NCBI RefSeq assembly: GCF_011762155.1
Contig: NZ_JAASQL010000008.1
Location: 1-46,637 of the forward strand
Source: Wenyingzhuangia heitensis
GTDB lineage: Bacteria > Bacteroidota > Bacteroidia > Flavobacteriales > Flavobacteriaceae
Direction: 5' to 3'
DNA: 46,637 nucleotides
Shown: in pieces, positions 20,508-31,279 of the stretch
Numbering within the stretch: position 1 is the stretch's first letter
Layout: each line of letters opens with the position of its first letter
Notes under the pieces: generated by a model
What the model was told of the DNA's origin: nothing
Databases searched by the model: none
The model's input: the letters and a program-made list of their open reading frames with translations, nothing else
Position numbers and translations under genes: made by a program

Positions 20508-20882
20508 TTAAAAACAATCCTTACAAGTACCTGTTAAAACACAATTAACATTTTGAACAGTGTATTTGTCTGGAATCGAAAAATTAACTTCAGTAGGAAG
20601 GCATTCTATGGTTTCACATTTAACACATCTAAAGTGAAAATGATTGATAGATTTATGGATATTGTCGCAATCTAAACATAATGCAAAGTATTGCTTACCG
20701 TCTTCAGCAACAACTTTATGCAAAACTCCATCTTCACAAAAACGATTTAAAACACGGTAGATAGTTGCTCTGTTTATATCAATGTTTATTTTTTTCTCAA
20801 TCGCATCTTGACTCATTGCTTTTCCTGTCTTAGTAATCACATCTAAAACAGCTTCTTTTGTTGGAGTACTTCTTCTTTTCAT
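20508..20882 (-). CDS. Fur-family metalloregulator, probably Zur-like
   Basis: This 124-residue repressor has the Fur winged helix (TPTKEAVLDVITKTGKAMSQ, INRATIYRVLNRFCEDGVLH) and a metal-binding dimerization half with FRCVKCETIECL and a final TCKDCF. The CxxC pairs hold the structural zinc. The ATG at 20880-20882 is chosen: a TTG seven codons upstream would put the operator repeats inside the gene. It diverges from the plus-strand metal locus, and AT-rich repeats containing TTGCAAT/ATTGC lie between them, so it probably represses both. The downstream set (COG0523, FolE, ZnuD-like receptor) points to zinc as the effector; iron or manganese cannot be excluded. Confidence 0.82.
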   Translation of the reverse strand: MKRRSTPTKEAVLDVITKTGKAMSQDAIEKKINIDINRATIYRVLNRFCEDGVLHKVVAEDGKQYFALCLDCDNIHKSINHFHFRCVKCETIECLPTEVNFSIPDKYTVQNVNCVLTGTCKDCF

Positions 20883-20891
20883 GTTAATGCG

Positions 20892-20954
20892 ATATGTTTG
20901 CAATTATTATTGCGATTCTATTGCAATATTATAAAATATATAATATGTTTGCAA
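20892..20954. promoter_or_regulatory. Repeated operator, probable Fur/Zur-type binding region
   Basis: The spacer holds overlapping inverted repeats TTGCAAT-TATT-ATTGCGA (20898-20915) and TTGCGAT-TCT-ATTGCAA (20910-20926). The 12-base direct repeat ATATGTTTGCAA occurs exactly at 20892-20903 and 20943-20954. The region spans the promoters of the divergent Fur-family and flavoprotein genes. The second copy overlaps the plus-strand -7 box, so a bound repressor would block transcription. Confidence 0.6.
20921..20951 (+). promoter_or_regulatory. Bacteroidota-type promoter of the metal locus
   Basis: TTG at 20921-20923 is followed after 20 bases by TATGTTTG (20944-20951), a full TAnnTTTG -7 box. 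It points to the flavoprotein gene at 21021 and is embedded in the operator repeats. Confidence 0.6.
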
Positions 20955-21020
20955 ACTATTTAATGCGACTATGTTGCTTTAGAAGTAAAGAGTGAATTAC
21001 TTAGTTGAAAATTTAAGTTT

Positions 21021-21932
21021 ATGAAAGAAGATAATTTTTTTGAAGTTGTTATCATAGGAGGTAGTTATTCTGGTCTTTCTGCCGCTATGGCATTAGGTCG
21101 TTCTTTAAGAAAAGTTCTTGTTATAGATAATAATAAGCCATGCAATAGGCAAACACCACATTCACAAAATTTTTTAACGCAAGATGGTAAAACACCTAAA
21201 GAAATAGCCACAATAGCTAAAGAACAAGTGCAAAAATATAATTCGGTATCATTTTTAAATGATTTTGCAGTAAGTGTTAAAAAAGGAACAAATACGTTTG
21301 AGGTTAAAACAGAATTAGGAAAAACGCTTGTTGCTAAAAAAATAATTATAGCAACAGGAATTAAAGATATAATGCCTAATATAAAGGGGTTCTCTAATTG
21401 TTGGGGGATTTCTGTAATACATTGTCCTTATTGTCATGGATATGAACATAAAGCTGTAAAAACAGCAATTATAGCTAATGGAAATGAAGCACTAGACCGT
21501 ATTCCTTTAATAAAGAATCTTACCAATAATTTAACCATGCTAACCAATGGGGAAATGAATTTTAATCAGGGGCAATTAAAAAAACTTAAGGAGTATAATA
21601 TTGCAGTAACGGAGAAAGAAATTGTAGAAATAGAGCACAAAAAAGGACATGTTGAAAAAGTAATTTTTAAAGATGGTACCCAACAAGATTTTTCTGCAAT
21701 GTATGCCGTAATTCCTTTTGAACAACATACTTTAATTCCAGTAGATTTAGGGTGTGAACTAACGGAACAAGGACACATTACGGTTAATTCATTGCAACAA
21801 ACTACTGTTGATGGTGTGTTTGCTTGTGGAGATAACTCTACTCCAATAAGGTCGGTTGCATATTCAGTAGCTACAGGAAATATAGCAGGAGCAATGATTA
21901 ATAAAGAACTTTCTGACGAAGTTTTTAAATAA
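21021..21932 (+). CDS. Thioredoxin-reductase-like NAD(P)/FAD oxidoreductase
   Basis: This 303-residue flavoprotein has an N-terminal FAD-binding GGSYSGLSAA (residues 13-22) and a redox-active dithiol HCPYCHG (C135, C138). An ATG motif (IIATGIKD) and a C-terminal GVFACGDN, which binds the FAD ribityl chain, complete the pattern. This is the low-molecular-weight thioredoxin reductase fold, though a thioredoxin partner is not next to it. It is the first gene of the plus-strand metal run, behind the operator, with the MerC-like gene 26 bases later. It may keep cysteine ligands reduced during metal handling. The physiological substrate is unknown. Confidence 0.8.
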   Translation: MKEDNFFEVVIIGGSYSGLSAAMALGRSLRKVLVIDNNKPCNRQTPHSQNFLTQDGKTPKEIATIAKEQVQKYNSVSFLNDFAVSVKKGTNTFEVKTELGKTLVAKKIIIATGIKDIMPNIKGFSNCWGISVIHCPYCHGYEHKAVKTAIIANGNEALDRIPLIKNLTNNLTMLTNGEMNFNQGQLKKLKEYNIAVTEKEIVEIEHKKGHVEKVIFKDGTQQDFSAMYAVIPFEQHTLIPVDLGCELTEQGHITVNSLQQTTVDGVFACGDNSTPIRSVAYSVATGNIAGAMINKELSDEVFK

Positions 21933-21958
21933 TGGTTTAGAAAACAAATTTATAAAAA

Positions 21959-22351
21959 ATGAAAATAAAAAATAACACTATCGATATAATAGCATTCTCC
22001 AGTTCATTAATTTGTGCGGTGCATTGTGCGGCTATCCCTGTAGTACTTTCGTTTTCATCTTTAAGTAGTCTACATTTTTTAGAAAACCCATATATTGAAT
22101 GGACATTTGTAAGTTTAGGACTTGTGTTTGTTCTGCTTTCTTTATTACCTAGTTATAAAAAAGTGCATCATCATACAAAGCCTCTGTTGTTTGCTAGTAT
22201 AGGTTTTTTGTTTATTGCTTTGGGTAGGCTAAATTTAACGGAGTTGTTCGAAATTGTAAATACAGTTGTTGGAGCTTCTTTTGTTTCATGGGCTCATTAT
22301 TCTAATTGGAAATTATTAAATACGGAAGACTGCCGTAAACATCAATCTTAA
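21959..22351 (+). CDS. MerC-domain inner-membrane protein
   Basis: This 130-residue protein has about four transmembrane segments and the MerC signature SSSLICAVHCAAIPVVLSF (a Cys pair, CxxxC, within the first segment), with a short His stretch (KKVHHHTKP) in a loop. MerC proteins of mercury operons carry Hg(II) across the inner membrane. In Bacteroidota, MerC-like genes often stand beside Fur-family and TonB genes without any mer genes, as here, suggesting another thiophilic metal such as zinc. It is spaced 26 bases from the flavoprotein and 30 from the next gene. Confidence 0.8.
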   Translation: MKIKNNTIDIIAFSSSLICAVHCAAIPVVLSFSSLSSLHFLENPYIEWTFVSLGLVFVLLSLLPSYKKVHHHTKPLLFASIGFLFIALGRLNLTELFEIVNTVVGASFVSWAHYSNWKLLNTEDCRKHQS

Positions 22352-22381
22352 TCTTTTTAGACTATATCAGCTCGCTAATTA

Positions 22382-22687
22382 ATGAAACCGAATCGTATTA
22401 AAAATAGCATTACTTTCTTGTTTCTTGCTCTATTTTTTTTAATGAAAATAGCAGGACTACATGCACTGATTCATATAGATGATGAGCACGAAGAGCAATG
22501 TGTTGTTTGTGAATATGCGATTTCATACAATTTAATACCTATACTTTCTCCCGATGTTGAAGATTTTAGTGTTGAAAACACAGACTTAGTTGTTTGTGAA
22601 AAAAAGACTATAGACTACATTTTTAGTTTTTTAACCACTATTACTACAGATCAACTTTTCTCTAGACCTCCACCTTTCTTATTATAA
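22382..22687 (+). CDS. Small membrane-anchored Cys/His protein
   Basis: This 101-residue protein has an N-terminal hydrophobic segment (residues about 10-28, SITFLFLALFFLMKIAGLHA), which may be a signal anchor. A compact metal-ligand-rich stretch follows, HIDDEHEEQCVVCEYAIS, with two His, several acidic residues and a CxxC. The rest is hydrophobic and of unknown fold. I do not recognise a named family. Its position in the metal locus just before the TonB receptor suggests a periplasmic metal-binding role. The gene uses an ATG 30 bases after the MerC-like gene. Confidence 0.6.
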   Translation: MKPNRIKNSITFLFLALFFLMKIAGLHALIHIDDEHEEQCVVCEYAISYNLIPILSPDVEDFSVENTDLVVCEKKTIDYIFSFLTTITTDQLFSRPPPFLL

Positions 22688-22895
22688 GTTTCCCTATACA
22701 CTACACGGTTTATTGTTTGATTGATTTAACGATTTTTTAGTTGTTGCAAAACTTCTAAAACCTAGTTTTCTTAAAACACAAGAAATACTACAATGGTTAG
22801 CTCATCAAAAAATAGAGTCTTTGTACATCGCTGTATAGGTTTTTGAATTTTCCCTTATGCAGGGAATTTGTTTAAAAATTCTAGAATACCCAATT

Positions 22896-25265
22896 ATGTT
22901 TTATAAAACACTGAGTATATGGTTGCTTTGTAGCCTATATTCAATTGCATTTGCACAAAATACATCTCAAATAAAAGGAGTTGTTGTTAGTGAAAACACA
23001 TTAACTCCTATAGCTGGAGCCAATATTATAGGTAAAAACCTATTGTCTATATCATCAACAAATGGTGAGTTTGTTATAGATCATGTACACACAGATTCCT
23101 GTTCTTTTGAGGTGTGTTGTTTAGGTTATGCATGCAAAACCGTTGTTGTACATGCTGATGACGATAAAAACGCTGTTAAAATTTATTTAAAACAAGCTTC
23201 TACAGATTTAAAGGAAGTAAATATTTCTGCAAAATCAAAACAAAGAAAAGCCTTAGAAACACCAATGGTTTCTCAAACTGTATCTAAAGATTTTTTAGAT
23301 AAAAATAGAGAGAATAGTTTAATGCAAACTTTAAGTAAAATACCTGGAGTTAGTACTATTAACATTGGTTCTGGGCAATCTAAACCTGTAATTAGAGGTT
23401 TAGGATTTAACAGAGTTGCGGTGGTTCAGAACGGAATAAAACATGAAGCACAACAATGGGGAAATGACCACGGATTAGAAATAGATCAGCAAGGAATAGA
23501 AAACATTCAAATAATAAAGGGGCCTGCTTCTTTATTATATGGTTCTGATGCTATTGCGGGAGTGGTAGACATTCAGCCAAATAAAATTCCGTTACAGCAT
23601 TCTTTTAAGGGAGAGGTTAATGTACTGGGAGAAAGTAATAACGATTTGTTGGGAATATCTACTGGAATAGAGTCTAGAAAAGAAAAATGGTTTTACCGTG
23701 GGAGATTCACTTACAGAGATTATGCAGATTATAAAGTTCCTACAAATAAAATTAATTACGAAAATTACATTTTTGAATTGCACGATAATAACCTAAGAAA
23801 TACAGCAGGTAAAGAAATAGATGGAAGTGTTAGTGTTGGTTATGTTGCTAAAAACATAAAATCGGAAACAGTGTTTAGTAATGTAAATGCTAAAAACGGA
23901 TTTTTTGCCAATGCACATGGGTTAGAGGTAAGAACATCAAAAATAGATTATGACAGTTCTAATAGAGATATTGATTTGCCTTTTCATAACGTAAATCATT
24001 TTAAAATTACCAACAATACGTCTTTAGATTTTGGGAATCATACCTTGTTTTTTGATGTAGGTTTTCAGAACAACCACAGAGAAGAACATACAGAGCCAAC
24101 CGCTCATGGTTACATGCCAAAACCATCGGGTTCAAAAGAACGTGTGTTTAAAAAGAACACGTATTCTTTAAATGTAAAAGATTCGTTTACACTTAATAAA
24201 AAGCACGATGTGGTGTTGGGGGTAAACATGGAGTATCAAGATAATAATATTGGGGGGTGGGGATTTTTAATTCCAGAATATGATCGTTTTACTGCGGGTG
24301 TATTTGCTTATGACCAATTTGAAATTAATTCAGACTTACATTTTTTAGCGGGAATGCGTTATGATTTTGGTAAAGTAGACACCAAGGCTTATTACGATTG
24401 GTATCCTTCTACAGTAAGAAATGAAGACAATTCTACTTCTGATGTGTATTTGCAAAGAGCTCAAAACAAAAGTCTAAATTTTGGCAACTTGAGTGCTTCT
24501 GTAGGACTTAGTTACATTCAAAACCAAACGAGTTATAAACTAAATGTTGGTAGAAGTTTTAGAATGCCTTTGGCAAGTGAGTTGGCATCAGACGGAGTTA
24601 ATTATCACATGTATCGTTACGAAAGAGGAAATTTAGATTTAGATCCAGAGGTATCATATCAATTAGATGTAGAGGTAGACCATACCACAAAACTGTTTAG
24701 TGTTGGGGTTAGCCCATTTGTAAATCTGTTTGATAACTACATCTATTTAAACCCAACACCTACTTATTTTGAAACTTTGCAAATTTATGAATACACGCAA
24801 AGCAAAGTTTTTAGAATAGGGGGAGAGGCTAGAGCTAGTGTAAACCTTTATAAAAACTTGCAGTTAACTACTTCTGTAGAATATGTATACTCTAGACAAA
24901 CTAGTGGGCCTAAAAAAGATTTTACATTACCATTTTCACCACCCTTATCAGTATTGTTTTCTGCAAACTATCAGTTTAAAGACTTTTTGTTTTTTAAGAA
25001 ACCACAATTTATGGCAGATTATAGAATAACAGCATCGCAAGAAGAAATTGTGCCACCAGAAGAAATAACAGATGGTTTTCAGGTATTAAATATGTCTTTT
25101 ATCTCTAAAATGGATGTGTTTAAAAATGAAAATCCGATGGATGTACGTGTAAAATTAAATAATGTATTCAATACCAAATATTTTAACCATACCAGTTTTT
25201 ATAGGTTGATAGATGTGCCGGAAGCGGGTAGAAATATATCCTTATCACTAACAATACCTTTTTAA
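22896..25265 (+). CDS. ZnuD-like TonB-dependent outer-membrane receptor
   Basis: This receptor of about 789 residues starts at the ATG 22896 (MFYKTLSIWLLCSLYSIAFA signal peptide); an in-frame ATG at 22857 would add 13 residues before the signal and is less likely. Next come a carboxypeptidase-regulatory-like domain (IKGVVVSENTLTPIAGANII), a plug domain with the TonB-receptor pattern PVIRGLGFNRVAVVQNGI and KHEAQQWGNDHGLEIDQQGI, and a 22-strand type barrel ending ISLSLTIPF. The QQWGxDHGxEID wording is typical of ZnuD-like zinc receptors, and a His-containing loop (NNHREEHTEPTAHGYMP) is plausible for metal capture. It lies between the small Cys/His gene and the DUF4625 lipoproteins. Confidence 0.85.
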   Translation: MFYKTLSIWLLCSLYSIAFAQNTSQIKGVVVSENTLTPIAGANIIGKNLLSISSTNGEFVIDHVHTDSCSFEVCCLGYACKTVVVHADDDKNAVKIYLKQASTDLKEVNISAKSKQRKALETPMVSQTVSKDFLDKNRENSLMQTLSKIPGVSTINIGSGQSKPVIRGLGFNRVAVVQNGIKHEAQQWGNDHGLEIDQQGIENIQIIKGPASLLYGSDAIAGVVDIQPNKIPLQHSFKGEVNVLGESNNDLLGISTGIESRKEKWFYRGRFTYRDYADYKVPTNKINYENYIFELHDNNLRNTAGKEIDGSVSVGYVAKNIKSETVFSNVNAKNGFFANAHGLEVRTSKIDYDSSNRDIDLPFHNVNHFKITNNTSLDFGNHTLFFDVGFQNNHREEHTEPTAHGYMPKPSGSKERVFKKNTYSLNVKDSFTLNKKHDVVLGVNMEYQDNNIGGWGFLIPEYDRFTAGVFAYDQFEINSDLHFLAGMRYDFGKVDTKAYYDWYPSTVRNEDNSTSDVYLQRAQNKSLNFGNLSASVGLSYIQNQTSYKLNVGRSFRMPLASELASDGVNYHMYRYERGNLDLDPEVSYQLDVEVDHTTKLFSVGVSPFVNLFDNYIYLNPTPTYFETLQIYEYTQSKVFRIGGEARASVNLYKNLQLTTSVEYVYSRQTSGPKKDFTLPFSPPLSVLFSANYQFKDFLFFKKPQFMADYRITASQEEIVPPEEITDGFQVLNMSFISKMDVFKNENPMDVRVKLNNVFNTKYFNHTSFYRLIDVPEAGRNISLSLTIPF

Positions 25266-25302
25266 AATAAATAATTAATAACAATCATTAAAATTAAATC
25301 AA

Positions 25303-26133
25303 ATGAAAACAAAGAGTATCAAAACAAATTTTAAATTTTTAGCAATCATTGCTTTTTTAGCATTGACTTTTCAATCATGTAATAACGACGACGATAGTAT
25401 TGAATTAGGAGGTCCTGTTATTTCTGAGTTTGAATATGGAGAAGGTCATCATGGAGAGGATGAAGATCATGACCATGAAGAAGAAGCATATGCTTACAAA
25501 GGATCTGACATGCATTTAGAAGCAACAATTACTTCAGATGTAAAAATAGCAAGTATTTCACTTTCTGTACATACGCATGATGTAGAACCAGGTGACGATG
25601 AAGTAGAGTGGGATTTTGAAAAAGTATTTACAGACGAAAAATATTTAGTTCTAAATCCAACATTTCACGAGCATATTGACATTCCAAGTAACATTCCTGC
25701 TGGTGAATACCACGTAGAATTAGTAGTTACTGATGAAGATGGAAAAAGCACTGAAGTAGAAGGACATGTTGATATAATGGAACCTATTACCATTAGTGAG
25801 CCTTCTGTAGATACTACTGTAACTAGAGGAGATGATTTTCATGCAGAGTTCATGATAAATGCTGTTAAAGGTATTCACAATGTTTCTGTTGATGTACATG
25901 CGCATGGGTTAACTGTTGCTGAAGGAGAAGTAGAATGGGATTTTGAAAAAGAGTTTGAGGATAAGTACCATGAAAAAACAGAAGTAGAATTCCATGAACA
26001 CATAGATGTTCCTGCTACTGCACCTGCAGGAGAATACCACATTATTTTTACAGTTAAAGATGAAGATGGGAATACTCAAAAGTACGAAACTCATATAGAT
26101 GTTACCAAAGAGGGAGCAATTACTAAAGCATAA
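25303..26133 (+). CDS. DUF4625-type lipoprotein with duplicated His/acidic domains
   Basis: This 276-residue lipoprotein has a lipobox FQSC (Cys about 26) followed by NNDDDS. A His/Asp/Glu-rich stretch, GEGHHGEDEDHDHEEEAYAY, follows. Two tandem copies of one domain come next. Each has VEWDFEK, then FHEHIDxPxxxPAGEYHxxxxV, then DEDGxxxxxExHxDI, so the gene carries an internal duplication. The residues suggest zinc binding on the cell surface or in the periplasm. It follows the TonB receptor by 37 bases, precedes another DUF4625 lipoprotein, and a hairpin separates the two. DUF4625 proteins are not functionally characterised. Confidence 0.78.
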   Translation: MKTKSIKTNFKFLAIIAFLALTFQSCNNDDDSIELGGPVISEFEYGEGHHGEDEDHDHEEEAYAYKGSDMHLEATITSDVKIASISLSVHTHDVEPGDDEVEWDFEKVFTDEKYLVLNPTFHEHIDIPSNIPAGEYHVELVVTDEDGKSTEVEGHVDIMEPITISEPSVDTTVTRGDDFHAEFMINAVKGIHNVSVDVHAHGLTVAEGEVEWDFEKEFEDKYHEKTEVEFHEHIDVPATAPAGEYHIIFTVKDEDGNTQKYETHIDVTKEGAITKA

Positions 26134-26145
26134 AACACAAATTAA

Positions 26146-26177
26146 AACCCTTGTCGCTTTTTAAAGTGACAAGGGTT
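26146..26177 (+). terminator. Intercistronic hairpin between the two DUF4625 genes
   Basis: AACCCTTGTC (26146-26155) pairs with GACAAGGGTT (26168-26177), loop about 12. It is not followed by a long T run, so it may be a partial terminator or a transcript-stabilising hairpin that sets different levels of the receptor and lipoprotein mRNA against the downstream genes. Confidence 0.5.
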
Positions 26178-26191
26178 AAATAACAAAAGGT

Positions 26192-26671
26192 ATGAAAATT
26201 ATTAAAAATTATTTATTTTATTTTCTTGTAGCATCGCTTTTTATAGCCTGTACAAGTGATGACGGTTTTGATAAAGATGAAGAAAAACCAACCATTAGTG
26301 TAAATTATACCAATGGTTTTCCTCAGGGTTGTACTCAATTAACAAAAGGACAAACGTATAGCTTTAGAGCTCAGGTTACAGACAACAAAGAATTAGCGGC
26401 TTATAGTCTAGATATTCATCATAATTTTGACCACCATACACATGACGACCAAGTTACAGAATGTGATTTGGGAGCTATTAAATCATCTGTAAATCCTTAT
26501 TTACATGTAGAAAATTATACGATTACAGAAGGGTTAACGGCTTATGAAATAAACATCAGCATTACTATTCCTGATGATGTTGATACTGGTGATTATCATT
26601 GTGCTTATTCTGTAACAGATAAAACAGGTTGGCAGTCTAGAACTTCTATAGATATAAAAATTGTAGAGTAA
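26192..26671 (+). CDS. DUF4625-like lipoprotein, single domain
   Basis: This 159-residue lipoprotein has a lipobox SLFIAC (Cys20), followed by TSDDGFDKDEEKP. One domain follows, with YSLDIHHNFDHHTHDDQVTE as a His-rich loop and IPDDVDTGDYHCAYSVTDKT near the end. The order resembles each repeat of the preceding lipoprotein, so the two are probable paralogs. It stops nine bases before the COG0523 gene, so the two are co-transcribed. A metal-binding surface or periplasmic role is inferred from the histidines and location. Confidence 0.72.
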   Translation: MKIIKNYLFYFLVASLFIACTSDDGFDKDEEKPTISVNYTNGFPQGCTQLTKGQTYSFRAQVTDNKELAAYSLDIHHNFDHHTHDDQVTECDLGAIKSSVNPYLHVENYTITEGLTAYEINISITIPDDVDTGDYHCAYSVTDKTGWQSRTSIDIKIVE

Positions 26672-26680
26672 AATAAGACA

Positions 26681-27880
26681 ATGAAAAAATTACCCGTAAC
26701 TGTTTTAAGCGGTTTTCTAGGAGCAGGAAAAACCACATTATTAAATCATATTTTACATAATAAGCAGGGCTTAAAAGTGGCTGTTATTGTAAATGATATG
26801 AGCGAAGTAAACATTGATGCTCAGTTTATAGAAAATGAAAACACACTTTCTAGAACCGAAGAAAAACTAGTAGAAATGTCTAACGGATGTATTTGTTGTA
26901 CGTTGCGTGAAGATTTAATGGTTGAGGTAGAAAAATTAGCGGCTCAAAATAAGTTTGATTATTTACTAATAGAAAGTACAGGTATTAGCGAACCTATTCC
27001 TGTTGCCCAAACATTTACGTTTGAAAGTGAGGATGGTACTATAGATTTAAGTCGATTTAGTTATATAGATACGATGGTTACCGTATTAGATGCTTTTAAT
27101 TTTTTAAAAGACTTTTCTAGCGCTGATTATTTAGCCACTAGAGAACTTACCAATATTGATGGAGATGATAGAACGATTGTTAATTTGTTAACAGATCAAA
27201 TTGAGTTTGCCAATGTCATTATCATTAATAAAATGGATTTGGTTACCAAAGAAGAGTTAGAAGAACTAAAAAGTATTGTTCATAAACTAAACCCAGAAGC
27301 TAAAATTATTTTTGCCAATCAATCTAACGTAGCCTTAAAAGAGGTTATTGATACAGGTTTGTTTGATTATGACAAAGCAGAAGCTTCTGCAGGTTGGATC
27401 AAAGAACTAGAAAACGAACATACTCCAGAAACCGAAGAATACGGTATTGGTTCTATGGTGTTTAAAAGTAAAAAACCGTTTCATCCAGAGCGTTTTTTAA
27501 CCTACTTAAATACAGACTTTCCACAAAATATTATACGTAGTAAAGGGTTGTTTTGGATGGCATCAAGATCTGGGCAAGCCTTGGTGTGGAGTTCTGCTGG
27601 TGGTTCTTGCAAGGCAGATTCTGCAGGAGATTGGTGGGCATCTATGCCGTATAGTGAGCGAATCAATCATCCGATGTTTCATGAAAACAAAGACCAGTTA
27701 GAAAGTGATTGGGATTCTGTTTTTGGAGACAGAAAAATAGAACTAGTATTTATAGGACAACACATAGAAAAAGAAAAAATGAGAACTCATTTAGAAAAGT
27801 GCTTGCTAACGGATGAAGAAGTCTCAGTTTGGAAAAATGAATTGTTCCCTCAAAAAGACCAATGGCCTATTGTTAGATAA
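26681..27880 (+). CDS. COG0523/CobW-family GTP-dependent metallochaperone
   Basis: This 399-residue P-loop GTPase has Walker [12 protein letters not shown] (residues 11-21), the family's metal-binding CxCC at [11 protein letters not shown] (C70, C72, C73), the STGISEP switch motif and INKMDL as the guanine-specificity motif. A C-terminal CobW_C domain follows (from about 255). Members near Zur-type repressors hand zinc to client enzymes under zinc limitation; a cobalt or nitrile-hydratase role is unlikely here. It lies nine bases after the second lipoprotein and 21 before the ABC ATPase. The presence of a folE gene downstream is a recurrent partner of zinc-type COG0523 proteins. Confidence 0.9.
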
Positions 27881-27901
27881 AAAGAAAACCTATAAATTTA
27901 T

Positions 27902-28531
27902 ATGATACAAATAAACAATCTTACGTTTCAATACCCAACCAAAGAACACGTTTTTAAATTCCCTAATATCCATTTAAAAGAACAAGAAAATTTACTTGTC
28001 TTAGGAAAATCTGGAGTAGGAAAAACAACGTTGTTACATATATTAGCAGGTTTATTACAACCTACTCAAGGAACTGTTAAGATTGATGATGTGTCTATAC
28101 ATTCTTTGTCTCATCAAAAGTTAGATGCTTTTAGAGGACAAAATATAGGGCTTGTTTTTCAAAGTAATCATGCCGTAAATTCTTTAACTGTTTTAGAAAA
28201 CTTACAGGCTCGTCTTTTTTTTAGCAAACAACCTGTTGACCCTAAAAAGATTGATGTCTTGTTAGAAGAATTGGGTTTAATTCAGCTTAAAAAACATTAT
28301 ATAAATGAACTCAGTCAAGGACAATTACAAAGATTGGCCATTGCATTGTCTGTAATTCACAATCCTAAAATTATTTTGGCAGATGAGCCTACATCTAGTT
28401 TAGATGATGACAATTGTAAGGTAGTAATAGAACTACTTAAAAAAAAAGCGGAGCAGACCAATGCTAATCTTGTGGTAATTACACACGATCAAAGAGTAAA
28501 GTCATTATTTTCTAATACCCTTACATTATGA
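27902..28531 (+). CDS. ABC transporter ATP-binding protein (LolD/MacB type)
   Basis: This 209-residue ATPase has Walker A GKSGVGKTTLL, the Q loop LVFQSNHAVN, a signature LSQGQLQRLAIALS (close to LSGGQ), Walker B ILADEPTSSLDDD and a switch His (VITHDQRV). The Q in place of the first G in LSGGQ is unusual but tolerated. It overlaps the next gene by four bases (ATGA) and so is coupled to the FtsX-like permease. Its order, ATPase then permease then DUF3299-like exported protein, is that of the Zur-controlled Pseudomonas PA4064-PA4066 genes and Vibrio Zrg genes. A role in zinc-related transport is inferred from this. Confidence 0.85.
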   Translation: MIQINNLTFQYPTKEHVFKFPNIHLKEQENLLVLGKSGVGKTTLLHILAGLLQPTQGTVKIDDVSIHSLSHQKLDAFRGQNIGLVFQSNHAVNSLTVLENLQARLFFSKQPVDPKKIDVLLEELGLIQLKKHYINELSQGQLQRLAIALSVIHNPKIILADEPTSSLDDDNCKVVIELLKKKAEQTNANLVVITHDQRVKSLFSNTLTL

Positions 28532-29751
28532 GAATCTGGAAAATAAGCCTACAAAACATCAAAAGCAAAAAAGGCTATACACTTGTGAGTATATTTACCT
28601 TGGCATTAAGTAGTATGCTTCTTTTAGGAATTCAGCAACTAAAAAAAACATTTCAATATCAAGTAAATAATAATATTGAAAAGATAGATATGGTGGTGGG
28701 AGCTAAAGGAAGTCCACTACAATTGGTGTTGTCATCAGTCTTACATATGGACAATCCTACAGGGAATATTCTATACAACGATGCCAAAAAAATTGGTGAG
28801 AGTAGACTGATAAAAACGGCCATTCCTATTTCTTATGGTGATAATTACAAAGGATATAAAATTGTAGGAACCACCAAAGAGTTTGCTAGTCTTTACAATG
28901 CAGTGTTAGATAAAGGACGTGAGGTAAACAAAGCTATGGAAGTGGTATTAGGACATGATATTGCTAAAAATTTAGAATTAGAGTTAGGGGATACTTTTTT
29001 AAGCTCTCATGGTCTGTTAGAAAATGATCTAGATGTTCATTCGGAATATTTAACCGTTGTGGGTATTTACAAACAAACTAACAAAGTAATAGATAGATTA
29101 ATTATAACGGATTTAGAAAGTATTTGGGAGGTTCATCATCATGAAAAAGAAGAACATCATCATGATGATGGGGAGCACTACCACAAAACAGAACATCATT
29201 CTGAAAAAGAAATAACCTCTTTGTTAGTGACTTTTAAATCTCCTACAGGGCTTTTAACAATGCCTAAAAGAATTAATAAAAACACCAATATGCAGGCAGC
29301 ATTGCCAAAATATGAATTAGATAAATTGTATGAATATACAGGAGTAGGATTTACAATTATTTCTGTAATTGCCTATGTTATCTTTTTAGTTTCTAGCCTT
29401 ATTATTTTCATTAGTATTTACAAAATGATCAAAGAGCAGCGTTTTTACCTAGCTCTTTTTAGAACCTATGGAGCAAGTAATCTTCAGTTGTTGCAAATTA
29501 TAGCCTATGAAACTTTTACCATTGTATCTATTGCTTTTTTGTTAGGAATAGCGATGGCAAAGGGAGGTCTTTATTTTATGTTTTCTATACTAAATGCTAA
29601 CTACCAACAAACTCGTATTCAAGATCTTGCTATTACAGACTACTTAGAGTTAGGAAGCTTGGTTTTTACCGTGGTTGTTTTATCTGTGTTACTGGCTATA
29701 TATCCTATTGTAAAAATGAATATTTCAACAACGTTAAGTCATGAAAAATAA
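28528..29751 (+). CDS. FtsX-like ABC permease with a His-rich periplasmic loop
   Basis: This 407-residue permease has one N-terminal transmembrane segment (about 17-35), a large periplasmic domain, and three more membrane segments (about 273-297, 325-350 and 370-395), the LolE/MacB topology. The periplasmic domain contains ten histidines in 22 residues: H203-205, H210-212, H217, H219, H223 and H224, mixed with acidic residues (EVHHHEKEEHHH). This is not usual for LolE-type proteins and suggests metal contact. It is translationally coupled with the ATPase and overlaps the following exported-protein gene by 11 bases. Confidence 0.82.
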   Translation: MRIWKISLQNIKSKKGYTLVSIFTLALSSMLLLGIQQLKKTFQYQVNNNIEKIDMVVGAKGSPLQLVLSSVLHMDNPTGNILYNDAKKIGESRLIKTAIPISYGDNYKGYKIVGTTKEFASLYNAVLDKGREVNKAMEVVLGHDIAKNLELELGDTFLSSHGLLENDLDVHSEYLTVVGIYKQTNKVIDRLIITDLESIWEVHHHEKEEHHHDDGEHYHKTEHHSEKEITSLLVTFKSPTGLLTMPKRINKNTNMQAALPKYELDKLYEYTGVGFTIISVIAYVIFLVSSLIIFISIYKMIKEQRFYLALFRTYGASNLQLLQIIAYETFTIVSIAFLLGIAMAKGGLYFMFSILNANYQQTRIQDLAITDYLELGSLVFTVVVLSVLLAIYPIVKMNISTTLSHEK

Positions 29752-30181
29752 AATCATTCTTATAGTGTTTTTGGGAGTTTGTTCGGTGAGTTTTGGGCAA
29801 CAAACTATTACTTGGCAAGATTTAGCAAAGGTAAAATTTACAGAAAAGTATTTTCCTGCATTGAAAGAAACTTTTTTATATCCACATTTTTCTGTCTCGG
29901 TAAAAAGTTTAGAAGGAAAACAAGTACAACTCAAAGGATATTTTTTAGATGTAGATCCTCAAGGAAAATTATATGTATTGTCTAAAGGACCTATGTCTTC
30001 CTGTTTCTTTTGTGGAGAAGGTGGCCCCGAAACTGCTGTAGAAATACAATTGGCATCTGCAGCTAATTTTAAAACAGATGACGTGTTAGTGGTTACCGGA
30101 ACTTTGTACTTAAATGCAGATGATATTGAGCATTTTAATTACATTTTAAAAGATTGTAGAGCAAAACGAATTGACAAATAA
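29741..30181 (+). CDS. Exported DUF3299-like protein
   Basis: This 146-residue exported protein has a signal peptide (MKNKIILIVFLGVCSVSFGQ). Its body reads KSLEGKQVQLKGYFLDVDPQ and GKLYVLSKGPMSSCFFCGEG. The GYFL and a conserved Cys after the core strands resemble DUF3299, the family that sits directly after the FtsX-like permease in Zur-controlled operons of Pseudomonas (PA4066) and Vibrio. The CFFC pair could bind metal or form a disulfide. Its 11-base overlap with the permease gene places it in the same unit. Family membership is by resemblance and gene order. Confidence 0.65.
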   Translation: MKNKIILIVFLGVCSVSFGQQTITWQDLAKVKFTEKYFPALKETFLYPHFSVSVKSLEGKQVQLKGYFLDVDPQGKLYVLSKGPMSSCFFCGEGGPETAVEIQLASAANFKTDDVLVVTGTLYLNADDIEHFNYILKDCRAKRIDK

Positions 30182-30199
30182 ATTTTAAAAAATAAAAAG

Positions 30200-30856
30200 G
30201 TGGAAAATAAAAATTTTGAAGAAATGGGAGACAGTCATCAAATGACTTCTTTAGAAACACCTTTAAGATCAGATGCTTTTAAAAAATCTGATGAAGAAAA
30301 AATAAAAGCCATTCAACAACATTTTTCTAAAATTATGGAAGAGTTGGGGTTAGATTTAACCGATGATAGTTTAAAAGGAACTCCTTATAGAGTAGCAAAA
30401 ATGTATGTAAAAGAATTGTTTATGGGATTAAACCCCGCCAACAAACCCAAACTATCTGTGTTTGACAATAAGTACGATTATAACAAAATGTTGGTAGAAA
30501 GTGACATTACTTTTAATTCATCGTGCGAACATCACTTTTTACCTATTGTAGGAAAAGCTCATGTGGGGTATGTATCTAGCGGAAAAGTAATAGGATTGTC
30601 TAAAATTAATAGAGTAGTAGATTATTATGCAAAAAGACCTCAGGTACAAGAGCGTATGAGTTTGCAAATATTTAACGAATTAAAAGAAGTATTAGATACA
30701 GACAATGTAATTGTGGTGGTAGAAGCAGAGCATTTATGTGTGTCTAGCAGAGGGATTAACGATAAAACATCTAAAACAACTACTATAGAATACGCAGGAG
30801 TTTTTAAAGATGCTAACACAAGAAATGATTTTTTTAAACTGATGAATCCTAAATAA
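30200..30856 (+). CDS. folE: GTP cyclohydrolase I (FolE type IA)
   Basis: This 218-residue enzyme converts GTP to dihydroneopterin triphosphate, the first step of folate and pterin synthesis. The zinc ligands are C109 and H112 (SSCEHHFLP) and C180 (EHLCVSSRG), at nearly the same positions as in Escherichia coli (C110, H113, C181), so it is the zinc-dependent type IA, not the zinc-sparing IB. The start is GTG at 30200; an ATG nine codons later is possible. It is in a zinc-limitation locus rather than with folate genes, so it is probably a second copy kept active by the nearby COG0523 chaperone. That is inference. Confidence 0.9.
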   Translation: MENKNFEEMGDSHQMTSLETPLRSDAFKKSDEEKIKAIQQHFSKIMEELGLDLTDDSLKGTPYRVAKMYVKELFMGLNPANKPKLSVFDNKYDYNKMLVESDITFNSSCEHHFLPIVGKAHVGYVSSGKVIGLSKINRVVDYYAKRPQVQERMSLQIFNELKEVLDTDNVIVVVEAEHLCVSSRGINDKTSKTTTIEYAGVFKDANTRNDFFKLMNPK

Positions 30857-30862
30857 TAATTT

Positions 30863-31279
30863 GTGGAAGCCAGAAATATTTTAAAGCAACACTCTTTACG
30901 AGCTACCTCTCATAGGTGTAAGGTATTAGATTATATGATACAATCTAACCGTGCCTTAACGCATTTAGATTTAGAGGGAAATTTTAAGAATAAAATAAAC
31001 AGGGTAAGTTTGTATAGAATGTTGTACTCGTTTTCTGAAAAAAATATTGTGAATGAAATTATAGACTCTAACAGGGTCACTAATTATATTTTTAACAAGC
31101 AATTAAAAAAGCACGTACAACATTCTTATTTTAAATGTAAAACATGCAATAAGGTGATAAAACTACCAGCATTGCCTATAGAGTATGTAAAATGTTTTGA
31201 GCATATACACATAGAAAAACTAAATGTGTTGGCAGAAGGAACTTGTAAAACCTGTTGTACAAAAATTACTGACAATTAG
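30863..31279 (+). CDS. Second Fur-family regulator
   Basis: This 138-residue Fur-like protein starts at GTG 30863, six bases after folE. The N-terminal half (LKQHSLRATSHRCKVLDYMI, then HLDLEGNFKNKINRVSLYRM) is the Fur winged helix, and the C-terminal half has FKCKTCNKVIKL and GTCKTCC, two CxxC sites as in the first Fur-family gene. It diverges clearly from that one and lies at the end of the same plus-strand run, so the locus is bracketed by two Fur-family regulators. It may be autoregulatory or sense another metal. It is followed by the convergent nadB gene. Confidence 0.8.
   Translation: MEARNILKQHSLRATSHRCKVLDYMIQSNRALTHLDLEGNFKNKINRVSLYRMLYSFSEKNIVNEIIDSNRVTNYIFNKQLKKHVQHSYFKCKTCNKVIKLPALPIEYVKCFEHIHIEKLNVLAEGTCKTCCTKITDN

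What the first reader, a model, noticed from the sequence alone, without database searches (positions are those of the whole stretch)
20508..31279. A complete, probably zinc-responsive acquisition locus bracketed by two Fur-family regulators
Twelve genes in one plus-strand run, plus a divergent repressor, cover each step: TonB receptor, metal-binding lipoproteins, MerC-like membrane protein, ABC pair, exported CxxC protein, COG0523 chaperone and FolE. The ABC ATPase, FtsX-like permease and DUF3299-like exported protein are in the order of Zur-controlled PA4064-PA4066 and Vibrio Zrg genes as I know them. Here the His-rich partner of those systems is replaced by DUF4625 lipoproteins, and a thioredoxin-reductase-like enzyme and a second Fur protein are added. 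This combination may be an undescribed Bacteroidota zinc system. No canonical ZnuABC is present.
Basis: partly seen in the sequence, partly recalled or inferred. Interest (0 to 1): 0.78.

Follow-up and report, generated by a model that had tools for sequence, protein, structure and literature searches.

The report
Zinc-starvation operon with dithiol-toxin defence
A flavobacterium carries one long operon that probably switches on when zinc runs short, gathering zinc and, in the same stroke, making an enzyme related to those that disarm zinc-stealing antibiotics; its likely switch protein and DNA sites can be named, which makes this testable.

Summary
In detail: twelve plus-strand genes behind one promoter match, with a divergent Fur-family gene (FurA). 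The core (small CxxC membrane protein, TonB receptor, DUF4625 lipoprotein) is complete in 77 of 80 named loci. Zinc is favoured: a near-ZigA GTPase, a FolE paralog keeping its zinc ligands, and ABC/FtsX homologs of PA4064/PA4065. Two corrections. (1) That ABC pair is argued in print to be a MacB-like exporter, so no inner-membrane importer is shown. (2) The "thioredoxin reductase" is not an add-on: 13 of 14 FurA regions from a family draw carry it beside FurA, and its closest characterised solved relatives are the dithiol oxidases DepH and GliT, and 4ntd, not TrxB. In Pseudomonas such an enzyme, DnoP, is induced by zinc starvation and detoxifies zinc-chelating toxins. New here: an operator, TGCRA-N5-TYGCA, in 28 of 28 FurA-ortholog loci; in 25 its right half is the promoter's -33 element. 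The window most likely holds a zinc-limitation operon uniting zinc recovery with dithiol-toxin defence under a local regulator. Metal identity, repression and enzyme activity are inferred.

The parts
20508..20882 (-). FurA: Fur-family regulator, 124 aa from the ATG at 20882 (ORF call starts at 20903)
   Evidence: PF01475 40.4 bits; orthologs 45-82%; HxH and two CxxC pairs conserved
20888..20902 (.). operator box 1, TGCGATATGTTTGCA (TGCRA-N5-TYGCA)
   Evidence: one of 8 places in the genome (reversed control 6), the 6 outside this locus lying inside mechanically called ORFs
20911..20925 (.). operator box 2, TGCGATTCTATTGCA; its right half holds the -33 TTG of the promoter
20921..20951 (+). Bacteroidota-type promoter match TTG-N20-TATGTTTG
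   Evidence: the only + strand match to the pattern within the operon; same box-to-TTG offset in 25 of 28 FurA loci
20964..20978 (.). degenerate box 3, TGCGACTATGTTGCT
21021..21932 (+). FAD disulphide oxidoreductase, dithiol-oxidase-like (HCPYCHGYE)
21959..22351 (+). MerC-family membrane protein, CAVHC motif
   Evidence: PF03203 71.8 bits; CxxHC in 18 of 18 aligned
22382..22687 (+). small membrane protein with HxxxH, CxxC and near-terminal SRPPP
   Evidence: no Pfam family; in 78 of 80 loci; invariant residues in 18
22896..25265 (+). TonB-dependent receptor, 789 aa (ORF call from 22857)
   Evidence: PF00593, PF07715; NCBIfam ZnuD 147.6 and heme receptor 144.7 bits, both far below cut-off
25303..26133 (+). 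DUF4625 lipoprotein, two domains, ten invariant histidines in 39 aligned
   Evidence: model mean pLDDT 85.6
26192..26671 (+). DUF4625 lipoprotein, one domain
   Evidence: 25 aligned
26681..27880 (+). COG0523/ZigA-like GTPase, CICC motif
   Evidence: NF038288 564.8 bits, cut-off 600; motif in 9 of 9 aligned
27902..28531 (+). ABC ATPase, PA4064-like
   Evidence: 32% identity, E 6e-40 to the P. aeruginosa protein
28528..29751 (+). FtsX-like permease with His-rich loop, PA4065-like
   Evidence: 26% identity, E 3e-40; alignment of 16
29741..30181 (+). exported CxxC protein, remote DUF3299 relative, OB-like fold
   Evidence: profile probability 94.5; model and fold search
30200..30856 (+). FolE (GTP cyclohydrolase I) paralog keeping the Cys/His zinc ligands
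   Evidence: 59% to the genome's other FolE
30863..31279 (+). FurB: second Fur-family protein; near ZigA in one of 80 named loci (L088) and one unnamed locus (L029)

Best explanation
A single FurA-controlled operon for zinc limitation. With enough intracellular zinc, metal-bound FurA dimers sit on two or three TGCRA-N5-TYGCA boxes that overlap the -33 element and flank the start site, shutting both its own gene and the operon. When zinc falls, or when a membrane-crossing dithiol chelator strips it, FurA leaves. The cell then makes (a) a GliT/HlmI/DepH/DnoP-like oxidase that closes the chelating dithiol to a disulphide and frees the metal, (b) the outer-membrane receptor with its His-rich DUF4625 lipoproteins and small CxxC membrane partner, to capture zinc, (c) a ZigA-like GTPase and a spare zinc-type FolE, to keep folate synthesis metallated, and (d) the Zrg-type ABC/FtsX/DUF3299-like machine, which more likely exports a chelate or works on the envelope than imports zinc. 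Shown here: gene content, operator and promoter geometry, conservation, family relations. Inferred: zinc as the signal, repression, enzyme activity, MerC as a possible inner-membrane carrier.
For: Operator in 28 of 28 loci with a FurA ortholog of 55% identity or more; 52 sites in 530,643 bases, 50 in the stretch from 60 bp inside to 130 bp outside the FurA ORF start, the other 2 further inside long FurA ORF calls. A promoter match with its -33 TTG in a box's right half in 25 of 28. 8 places in the own genome (control 6); the 6 elsewhere all lie in ORFs. In the family draw the oxidase-like gene is in the divergent run beside FurA in 13 of 14 regions and a box in 13 of 14. HCPYCHGYE in 28 of 29 homologs, the 29th row a gap; TrxB NADPH motifs (recalled) in 0 of 29. 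DepH, 4ntd and GliT score 118-125 bits; structures named thioredoxin reductase other than 4ntd and the putative 4fk1 score at most 75. A TrxB over cut-off (382 bits) is elsewhere in the genome. PMC11317636 (abstract, two whole sections, passages): such an enzyme is induced by zinc starvation. ZigA and FtsX co-occur 12 times, 2.4 expected, p 3e-8. FolE keeps its zinc ligands. PMC10882993 (passages): a Zur operon with cobW1 and a folE paralog carries two Zur boxes.
Against: No expression data. FurA is far from the curated Zur model (19.9 bits, cut-off 167), and two cysteines before its HxH are lost in 3 of 16 orthologs aligned, of 28 (L042, L047, L112). 13 of 14 FurA regions from the family draw lack the receptor module beside FurA. 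In 4 of 5 genomes where FurA lies elsewhere and the receptor's upstream DNA was held (G180, G014, G172, G001) the receptor operon has no box; G019 has two. So the FurA-zinc link is local to a subset. The box pattern also stands upstream of the small protein in 6 of 52 loci without a FurA ortholog, so it is not unique to FurA. 27 of 80 loci carry none of the other partner genes in the DNA held. The receptor scores almost the same as ZnuD and as heme receptors. The best solved relatives of the flavoprotein, 3fbs and 4fk1, are uncharacterised, and 4fk1 is named a putative thioredoxin reductase.
Confidence: 0.53

Rival explanations
1. An ordinary zinc acquisition operon: the receptor brings zinc across the outer membrane, DUF4625 proteins pass it on, the ABC pair imports it, and the flavoprotein only keeps cysteines reduced.
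For: ZigA-like and FolE genes, conserved neighbourhood; Pfam names the ZrgA family a 'zinc uptake protein'.
Against: The permease matches MacB_PCD/FtsX in Pfam and LolF, YtrF, LolE and LolC among solved structures, and its relative PA4065 with PA4064 is argued to export. The flavoprotein lacks the TrxB NADPH motifs and a canonical TrxB exists elsewhere.
Confidence: 0.25
2. Metal specificity is not zinc: FurA senses cobalt, copper or another soft metal, and the operon handles that metal or a metallophore.
For: In P. aeruginosa the related exporter is proposed to move pyochelin-cobalt (PMC11481552, passages); MerC proteins are known for mercury (recalled); the receptor's specificity cannot be read from sequence.
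Against: ZigA-like GTPase plus zinc-ligand FolE; the DnoP enzyme responds to zinc starvation.
Confidence: 0.15
3. Soft-metal or electrophile detoxification: MerC, a flavin CxxC enzyme and metal-binding lipoproteins form a mercury-like defence, de-repressed by FurA.
For: MerC domain 71.8 bits; flavin disulphide oxidoreductase beside it.
Against: No MerA in the locus (MerA model 40.8 bits, cut-off 454), no MerR-type regulator among the operon's proteins; the receptor, ZigA and FolE have no place in it.
Confidence: 0.05

Closest known systems
PA4063-PA4066 of Pseudomonas aeruginosa / ZrgABCDE of Vibrio
   Same: ABC ATPase (32%), FtsX permease (26%) and a DUF3299-like exported protein in the same order
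   Different: No ZrgA/DUF2796 (PF10986) gene; the third gene is not recognised by the DUF3299 Pfam model; receptor, DUF4625, FolE, oxidase-like and local Fur genes added
DnoP (PA4170) zinc-starvation dithiol oxidase; HlmI, DepH, GliT
   Same: Same flavoprotein family, with the CPYCHGYE active site shared with DepH and 4ntd; linked to zinc
   Different: Here it is beside a Fur-family regulator with operator boxes and in one operon with zinc-type genes; dnoP is described as predicted monocistronic with its signalling cascade unknown (PMC11317636, passages and discussion). DnoP itself was not aligned here
Zur-controlled cobW1-folE operon of Cupriavidus metallidurans; ZagA-FolE of Bacillus
   Same: COG0523 GTPase with a FolE paralog; more than one regulator box (PMC10882993, passages)
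   Different: FolE here keeps the ligands of the zinc-dependent type; the box set looks local, not genome-wide; boxes of a sequence I found in no paper seen
ZnuD zinc receptors
   Same: TonB-dependent receptor, best NCBIfam hit
   Different: 147.6 bits against a cut-off of 950, close to the heme-receptor score; accompanied by the small CxxC protein and DUF4625 lipoproteins in 77 of 80 loci

Membership tests
Zrg / PA4063-66 cassette | ABC ATPase and FtsX permease homologous to PA4064/PA4065 | tested here: met
   E 6e-40 and 3e-40; that the record's genes are PA4064/65 is my reading of the order
Zrg / PA4063-66 cassette | ZrgA (PF10986) periplasmic protein | tested here: not met
   no PF10986 hit among the 13 locus proteins scanned; PF10986 found in the Aeromonas and Pseudomonas loci
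Zrg / PA4063-66 cassette | DUF3299 protein | tested here: inconclusive
   no DUF3299 hit in 17 members; profile comparison probability 94.5; PA4066-like structure 4hsp not in the 50 of 853 fold matches shown
Zrg / PA4063-66 cassette | zinc/Zur control | not testable with these tools
   needs expression data
Zur (FurA) | Fur domain with HxH and two CxxC pairs | tested here: met
Zur (FurA) | curated Zur model NF008646 | tested here: not met
   19.9 bits, cut-off 167
Zur (FurA) | zinc-dependent DNA binding | not testable with these tools
   -
Natural-product dithiol oxidase (DepH/HlmI/GliT/DnoP) | CXXC active site | tested here: met
   HCPYCHGYE in 28 of 29, one row a gap; same motif in DepH and 4ntd
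Natural-product dithiol oxidase (DepH/HlmI/GliT/DnoP) | closer to dithiol oxidases than to TrxB | tested here: met
   118-125 bits against at most 75 for named TrxB structures, apart from the putative 4fk1 at 145; no tree was built
Natural-product dithiol oxidase (DepH/HlmI/GliT/DnoP) | dithiol oxidation | not testable with these tools
   -
ZigA | NF038288 curated cut-off | tested here: not met
   564.8 of 600 bits; 0 of 199 genomes of the family draw pass
ZnuD | NF038289 curated cut-off | tested here: not met
   147.6 of 950 bits
ZnuABC | ABC-3 permease in the locus | tested here: not met
   none in the locus; a pair on C1 and a weaker hit on C4
MerC | PF03203 above gathering score | tested here: met
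   71.8 bits, cut-off 27.6

The most novel reading that the evidence does not exclude
FurA and its TGCRA-N5-TYGCA operator form a dedicated sensor of zinc theft. In flavobacteria the basic unit is FurA, operator and a dithiol oxidase, in 6 of 13 regions with a methyltransferase that could S-methylate the same toxins. Zinc-chelating dithiols such as holomycin are perceived as zinc loss, oxidised, and, in lineages like this one, answered in the same transcript by zinc recapture. MerC would be the missing inner-membrane zinc carrier of the operon.
Probability: 0.3. Interest if true: 0.85.

Novelty: new variant of a known kind. Interest (0 to 1): 0.63.

Why it matters
Zinc starvation is reported to induce a dithiol-toxin oxidase in P. 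aeruginosa, but the signalling cascade is stated to be not yet elucidated (PMC11317636, discussion read whole). Here a Fur-family gene, operator boxes and an oxidase of that family sit together and recur in other flavobacterial genomes, so a link between zinc sensing and toxin defence becomes directly testable. It would also give a function to DUF4625 (0 papers in the library searched) and a candidate zinc regulator-operator pair for Bacteroidota.

Tried and rejected
Importer reading of the ABC pair: set aside as default after PMC11481552 (passages) and the MacB/LolF/LolE-type matches. Global regulon of the box: rejected, since the genome count is 8 against 6 for the control and all six sites outside the locus lie inside ORFs. 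Housekeeping thioredoxin reductase: rejected. DUF2946 as the family of the small CxxC protein: no hit in 18 members at E 1, although an Aeromonas protein upstream of a Zrg cassette is a sub-threshold DUF2946 match (20.5 bits, cut-off 23.7). PA4066-like structure as nearest fold of the CxxC protein: not among the 50 matches shown of 853; OB folds were (AspRS, RPA, CST), at TM-score by query length below 0.5. DUF4625 has no clear solved relative by sequence (best E 0.51, 0.048); the model's fold matches are RbmA first by E-value and many Ig-like or related beta-sandwich proteins, all at low TM. Papers on Riemerella zinc, bS21 ribosomes and a Flavobacterium transcriptome (passages) gave nothing on this locus. 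FurB's role was not resolved.
Full report
WHAT IS THERE. The window is contig C8 of a 3.67-Mb assembly in 26 contigs. ORF calling confirms a divergent Fur gene and twelve plus-strand genes. Neighbouring genes are 58 bp apart or less, or overlap, except for 169 bp before the receptor ORF. A Bacteroidota-type promoter pattern, TTG-N18..21-TAnnTTTG (consensus recalled), occurs 8 times on the + strand of the whole window and once within the operon, at 20921-20951; one minus-strand match also falls inside the operon, at 26108. In the own genome DUF4625 is found only here.

CONSERVED CORE. A scan of GTDB species genomes with the DUF4625 alignment found 398 relatives and kept the best 80, mostly flavobacteria by record title. 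By BLAST in these 80: small CxxC protein 78, receptor 78, two-domain DUF4625 at 40% or more 73, any Fur of the FurA type 44, MerC 17, ABC, FtsX and CxxC protein 16 each, oxidoreductase 15, FolE 11, ZigA-like 8, FurB 1. Small protein, receptor and the query DUF4625 stand together in 77 of 80; L052 is cut at a contig end. Fur genes at 55% identity or more are in 28 of 80. With HMMs, 53 of 80 carry at least one of FtsX, ZigA, FolE, MerC, Fur or oxidoreductase and 27 carry none in the DNA held. Confluentibacter sediminis (L062) has nearly the same order: Fur, oxidoreductase, MerC, small protein, receptor, DUF4625 proteins, ZigA, ABC, FtsX, CxxC. In an even draw of 199 genomes from the family, own genome included, DUF4625 is in 30 (one below cut-off), this FtsX in 25, ZigA-like in 19. 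Overlaps are 13 (3.8 expected, p 2.5e-6) for DUF4625/FtsX, 12 (2.4, p 3e-8) for FtsX/ZigA and 8 (2.9, p 2.5e-3) for DUF4625/ZigA; without the own genome p is 8.8e-6, 1.4e-7 and 7.1e-3. These tests ignore phylogeny.

OPERATOR. The intergenic region holds TGCRA-N5-TYGCA boxes at 20888 and 20911 and a degenerate one at 20964. All 28 loci with a FurA ortholog have 1-3 exact boxes: 52 in 530,643 bases, 50 from 60 bp inside to 130 bp outside the FurA ORF start and 2 further inside long FurA ORF calls. In 25 of 28 a promoter match has its -33 TTG in a box's right half, at the same offset as in the window. The 52 loci without such an ortholog have 22 matches; 6 of these are TGCAAC-N3-GTTGCA, four of them by FolE, two with a Fur of about 30% identity alongside and one more within 53 bp of such a Fur, and 6 of the 52 loci have a box within 300 bp upstream of the small protein. 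In the own genome the pattern occurs at 8 places, against 6 for the reversed control; the 6 outside the locus all lie inside mechanically called ORFs. This points to a local operator rather than a genome-wide regulon.

FURA'S CONSTANT PARTNER. Of 15 other genomes with a FurA hit of 45% or more in the family draw, 14 were fetched. In 13 of 14 the oxidoreductase gene is in the divergent run: next to FurA in 11, behind an RidA-like gene in L146 (PF01042), behind two genes in L153; in L150 its ORF is only 175 aa. A box is present in 13 of 14; L152 has neither. Only 1 of 14 (L159) has the receptor/DUF4625 module. In the 80 DUF4625 loci, 11 of the 28 with a FurA ortholog have the oxidoreductase. Six of the 13 also carry a methyltransferase gene (L147-L151, L153, by similar N-termini); the one scanned, in L149, matches Methyltransf_25 and, just over its cut-off, TPMT. 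Against a simple story: in 4 of 5 genomes with FurA elsewhere and the receptor's upstream DNA in hand (G180, G014, G172, G001) the receptor operon has no box; G019 has two. The link of FurA with the zinc module is thus a fusion seen in a subset, which includes the window.

WHAT THE OXIDOREDUCTASE IS. Its characterised relatives among solved structures are DepH (125 bits), GliT (118) and 4ntd (118; deposited as 'Thioredoxin reductase', which I recall to be HlmI). Two uncharacterised structures score higher (3fbs 164; 4fk1 145, named putative thioredoxin reductase); other structures named thioredoxin reductase score at most 75. HCPYCHGYE is shared with DepH, 3fbs and 4ntd and kept in 28 of 29 homologs, the other row being a gap; TrxB NADPH motifs, recalled, occur in 0 of 29. 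A TrxB over its cut-off (382 bits) is elsewhere in the genome. PMC11317636 (abstract, sections 10 and 13 whole, passages) reports that P. aeruginosa DnoP, of the DepH group, is induced by zinc starvation and gliotoxin, detoxifies gliotoxin and related toxins, and that its signalling cascade is not elucidated; it also reports that the deletion was not hypersensitive to TPEN, so the enzyme acts on the toxin and not on zinc supply as such. PMC10500201 (passages) states that reduced gliotoxin and holomycin chelate zinc, and that S-methylation was posited as a back-up protection in S. clavuligerus.

ZINC-SIDE GENES. The GTPase scores 564.8 bits for ZigA against a cut-off of 600; 0 of 199 family genomes pass it. 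FolE keeps both cysteines and the two histidines of CEHH in 12 of 12 aligned; a further histidine is lost in one. It is 59% identical to a second FolE on C4. PMC10882993 (passages) describes a Zur-controlled cobW1-folE operon with two boxes. The ABC and FtsX proteins are homologous to the pair in a P. aeruginosa record with the order DUF2796, ABC, permease, DUF3299, OprG, which I take to be PA4063-PA4067. The same cassette follows a Fur gene in Phaeobacter and a GTP-binding protein, DUF1826 and DUF6525 in Pseudooceanicola. PMC11481552 (passages) argues that this pair is a MacB-type exporter. The two-domain DUF4625 protein has ten invariant histidines in 39 sequences and a confident two-domain beta model. 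The genome also has an ABC-3 pair with an adjacent DtxR-like regulator and a ZIP gene, so other inner-membrane import routes exist.

VERDICT. The strongest additions are the operator-promoter arrangement and the recognition that the regulator's most constant partner is a dithiol-oxidase-like enzyme. Zinc as signal, repression and toxin defence are inferences from families and published relatives. Searches for prior description: (listings); none of the titles or abstract openings listed describes this locus; most subscription papers are not held.

Noticed in passing
L134:3667-7107 (own genome C2): A second metal-type locus: His/Glu-rich lipoprotein, TonB receptor (24% to the window's) and a further Fur-family gene with a Cys- and His-rich stretch, perhaps the genome's true Zur.
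   Followed up: partly
L133:4172-12394 (own genome C1): ABC-3 pair with ATPase, binding protein and DtxR-like regulator, a divergent TonB receptor and a short COG0523-like GTPase; Mn-type by my reading, no family scan done.
   Followed up: partly
L039 (same contig as L012), L050, L065, L093, L096 (same contig as L017), L099: A second operator form, TGCAAC-N3-GTTGCA, mostly near FolE and in several loci beside a different Fur protein about 30% identical to FurA: regulator and operator may have changed together.
   Followed up: partly
L147-L151, L153: FurA, oxidoreductase, in most of them an 81-106 aa 'EVFITN'-type protein without family, and a methyltransferase: a recurrent small unit that may be a dithiol-toxin defence cassette.
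   Followed up: partly
window 30863-31279: FurB lacks cysteines before its metal-site histidines and lies near ZigA in two other loci (L029, L088); its role is open.
   Followed up: no
L102:10470-14064: Between DUF4625 and ZigA this locus carries a further ABC ATPase and two large proteins that look like membrane permeases.
   Followed up: no
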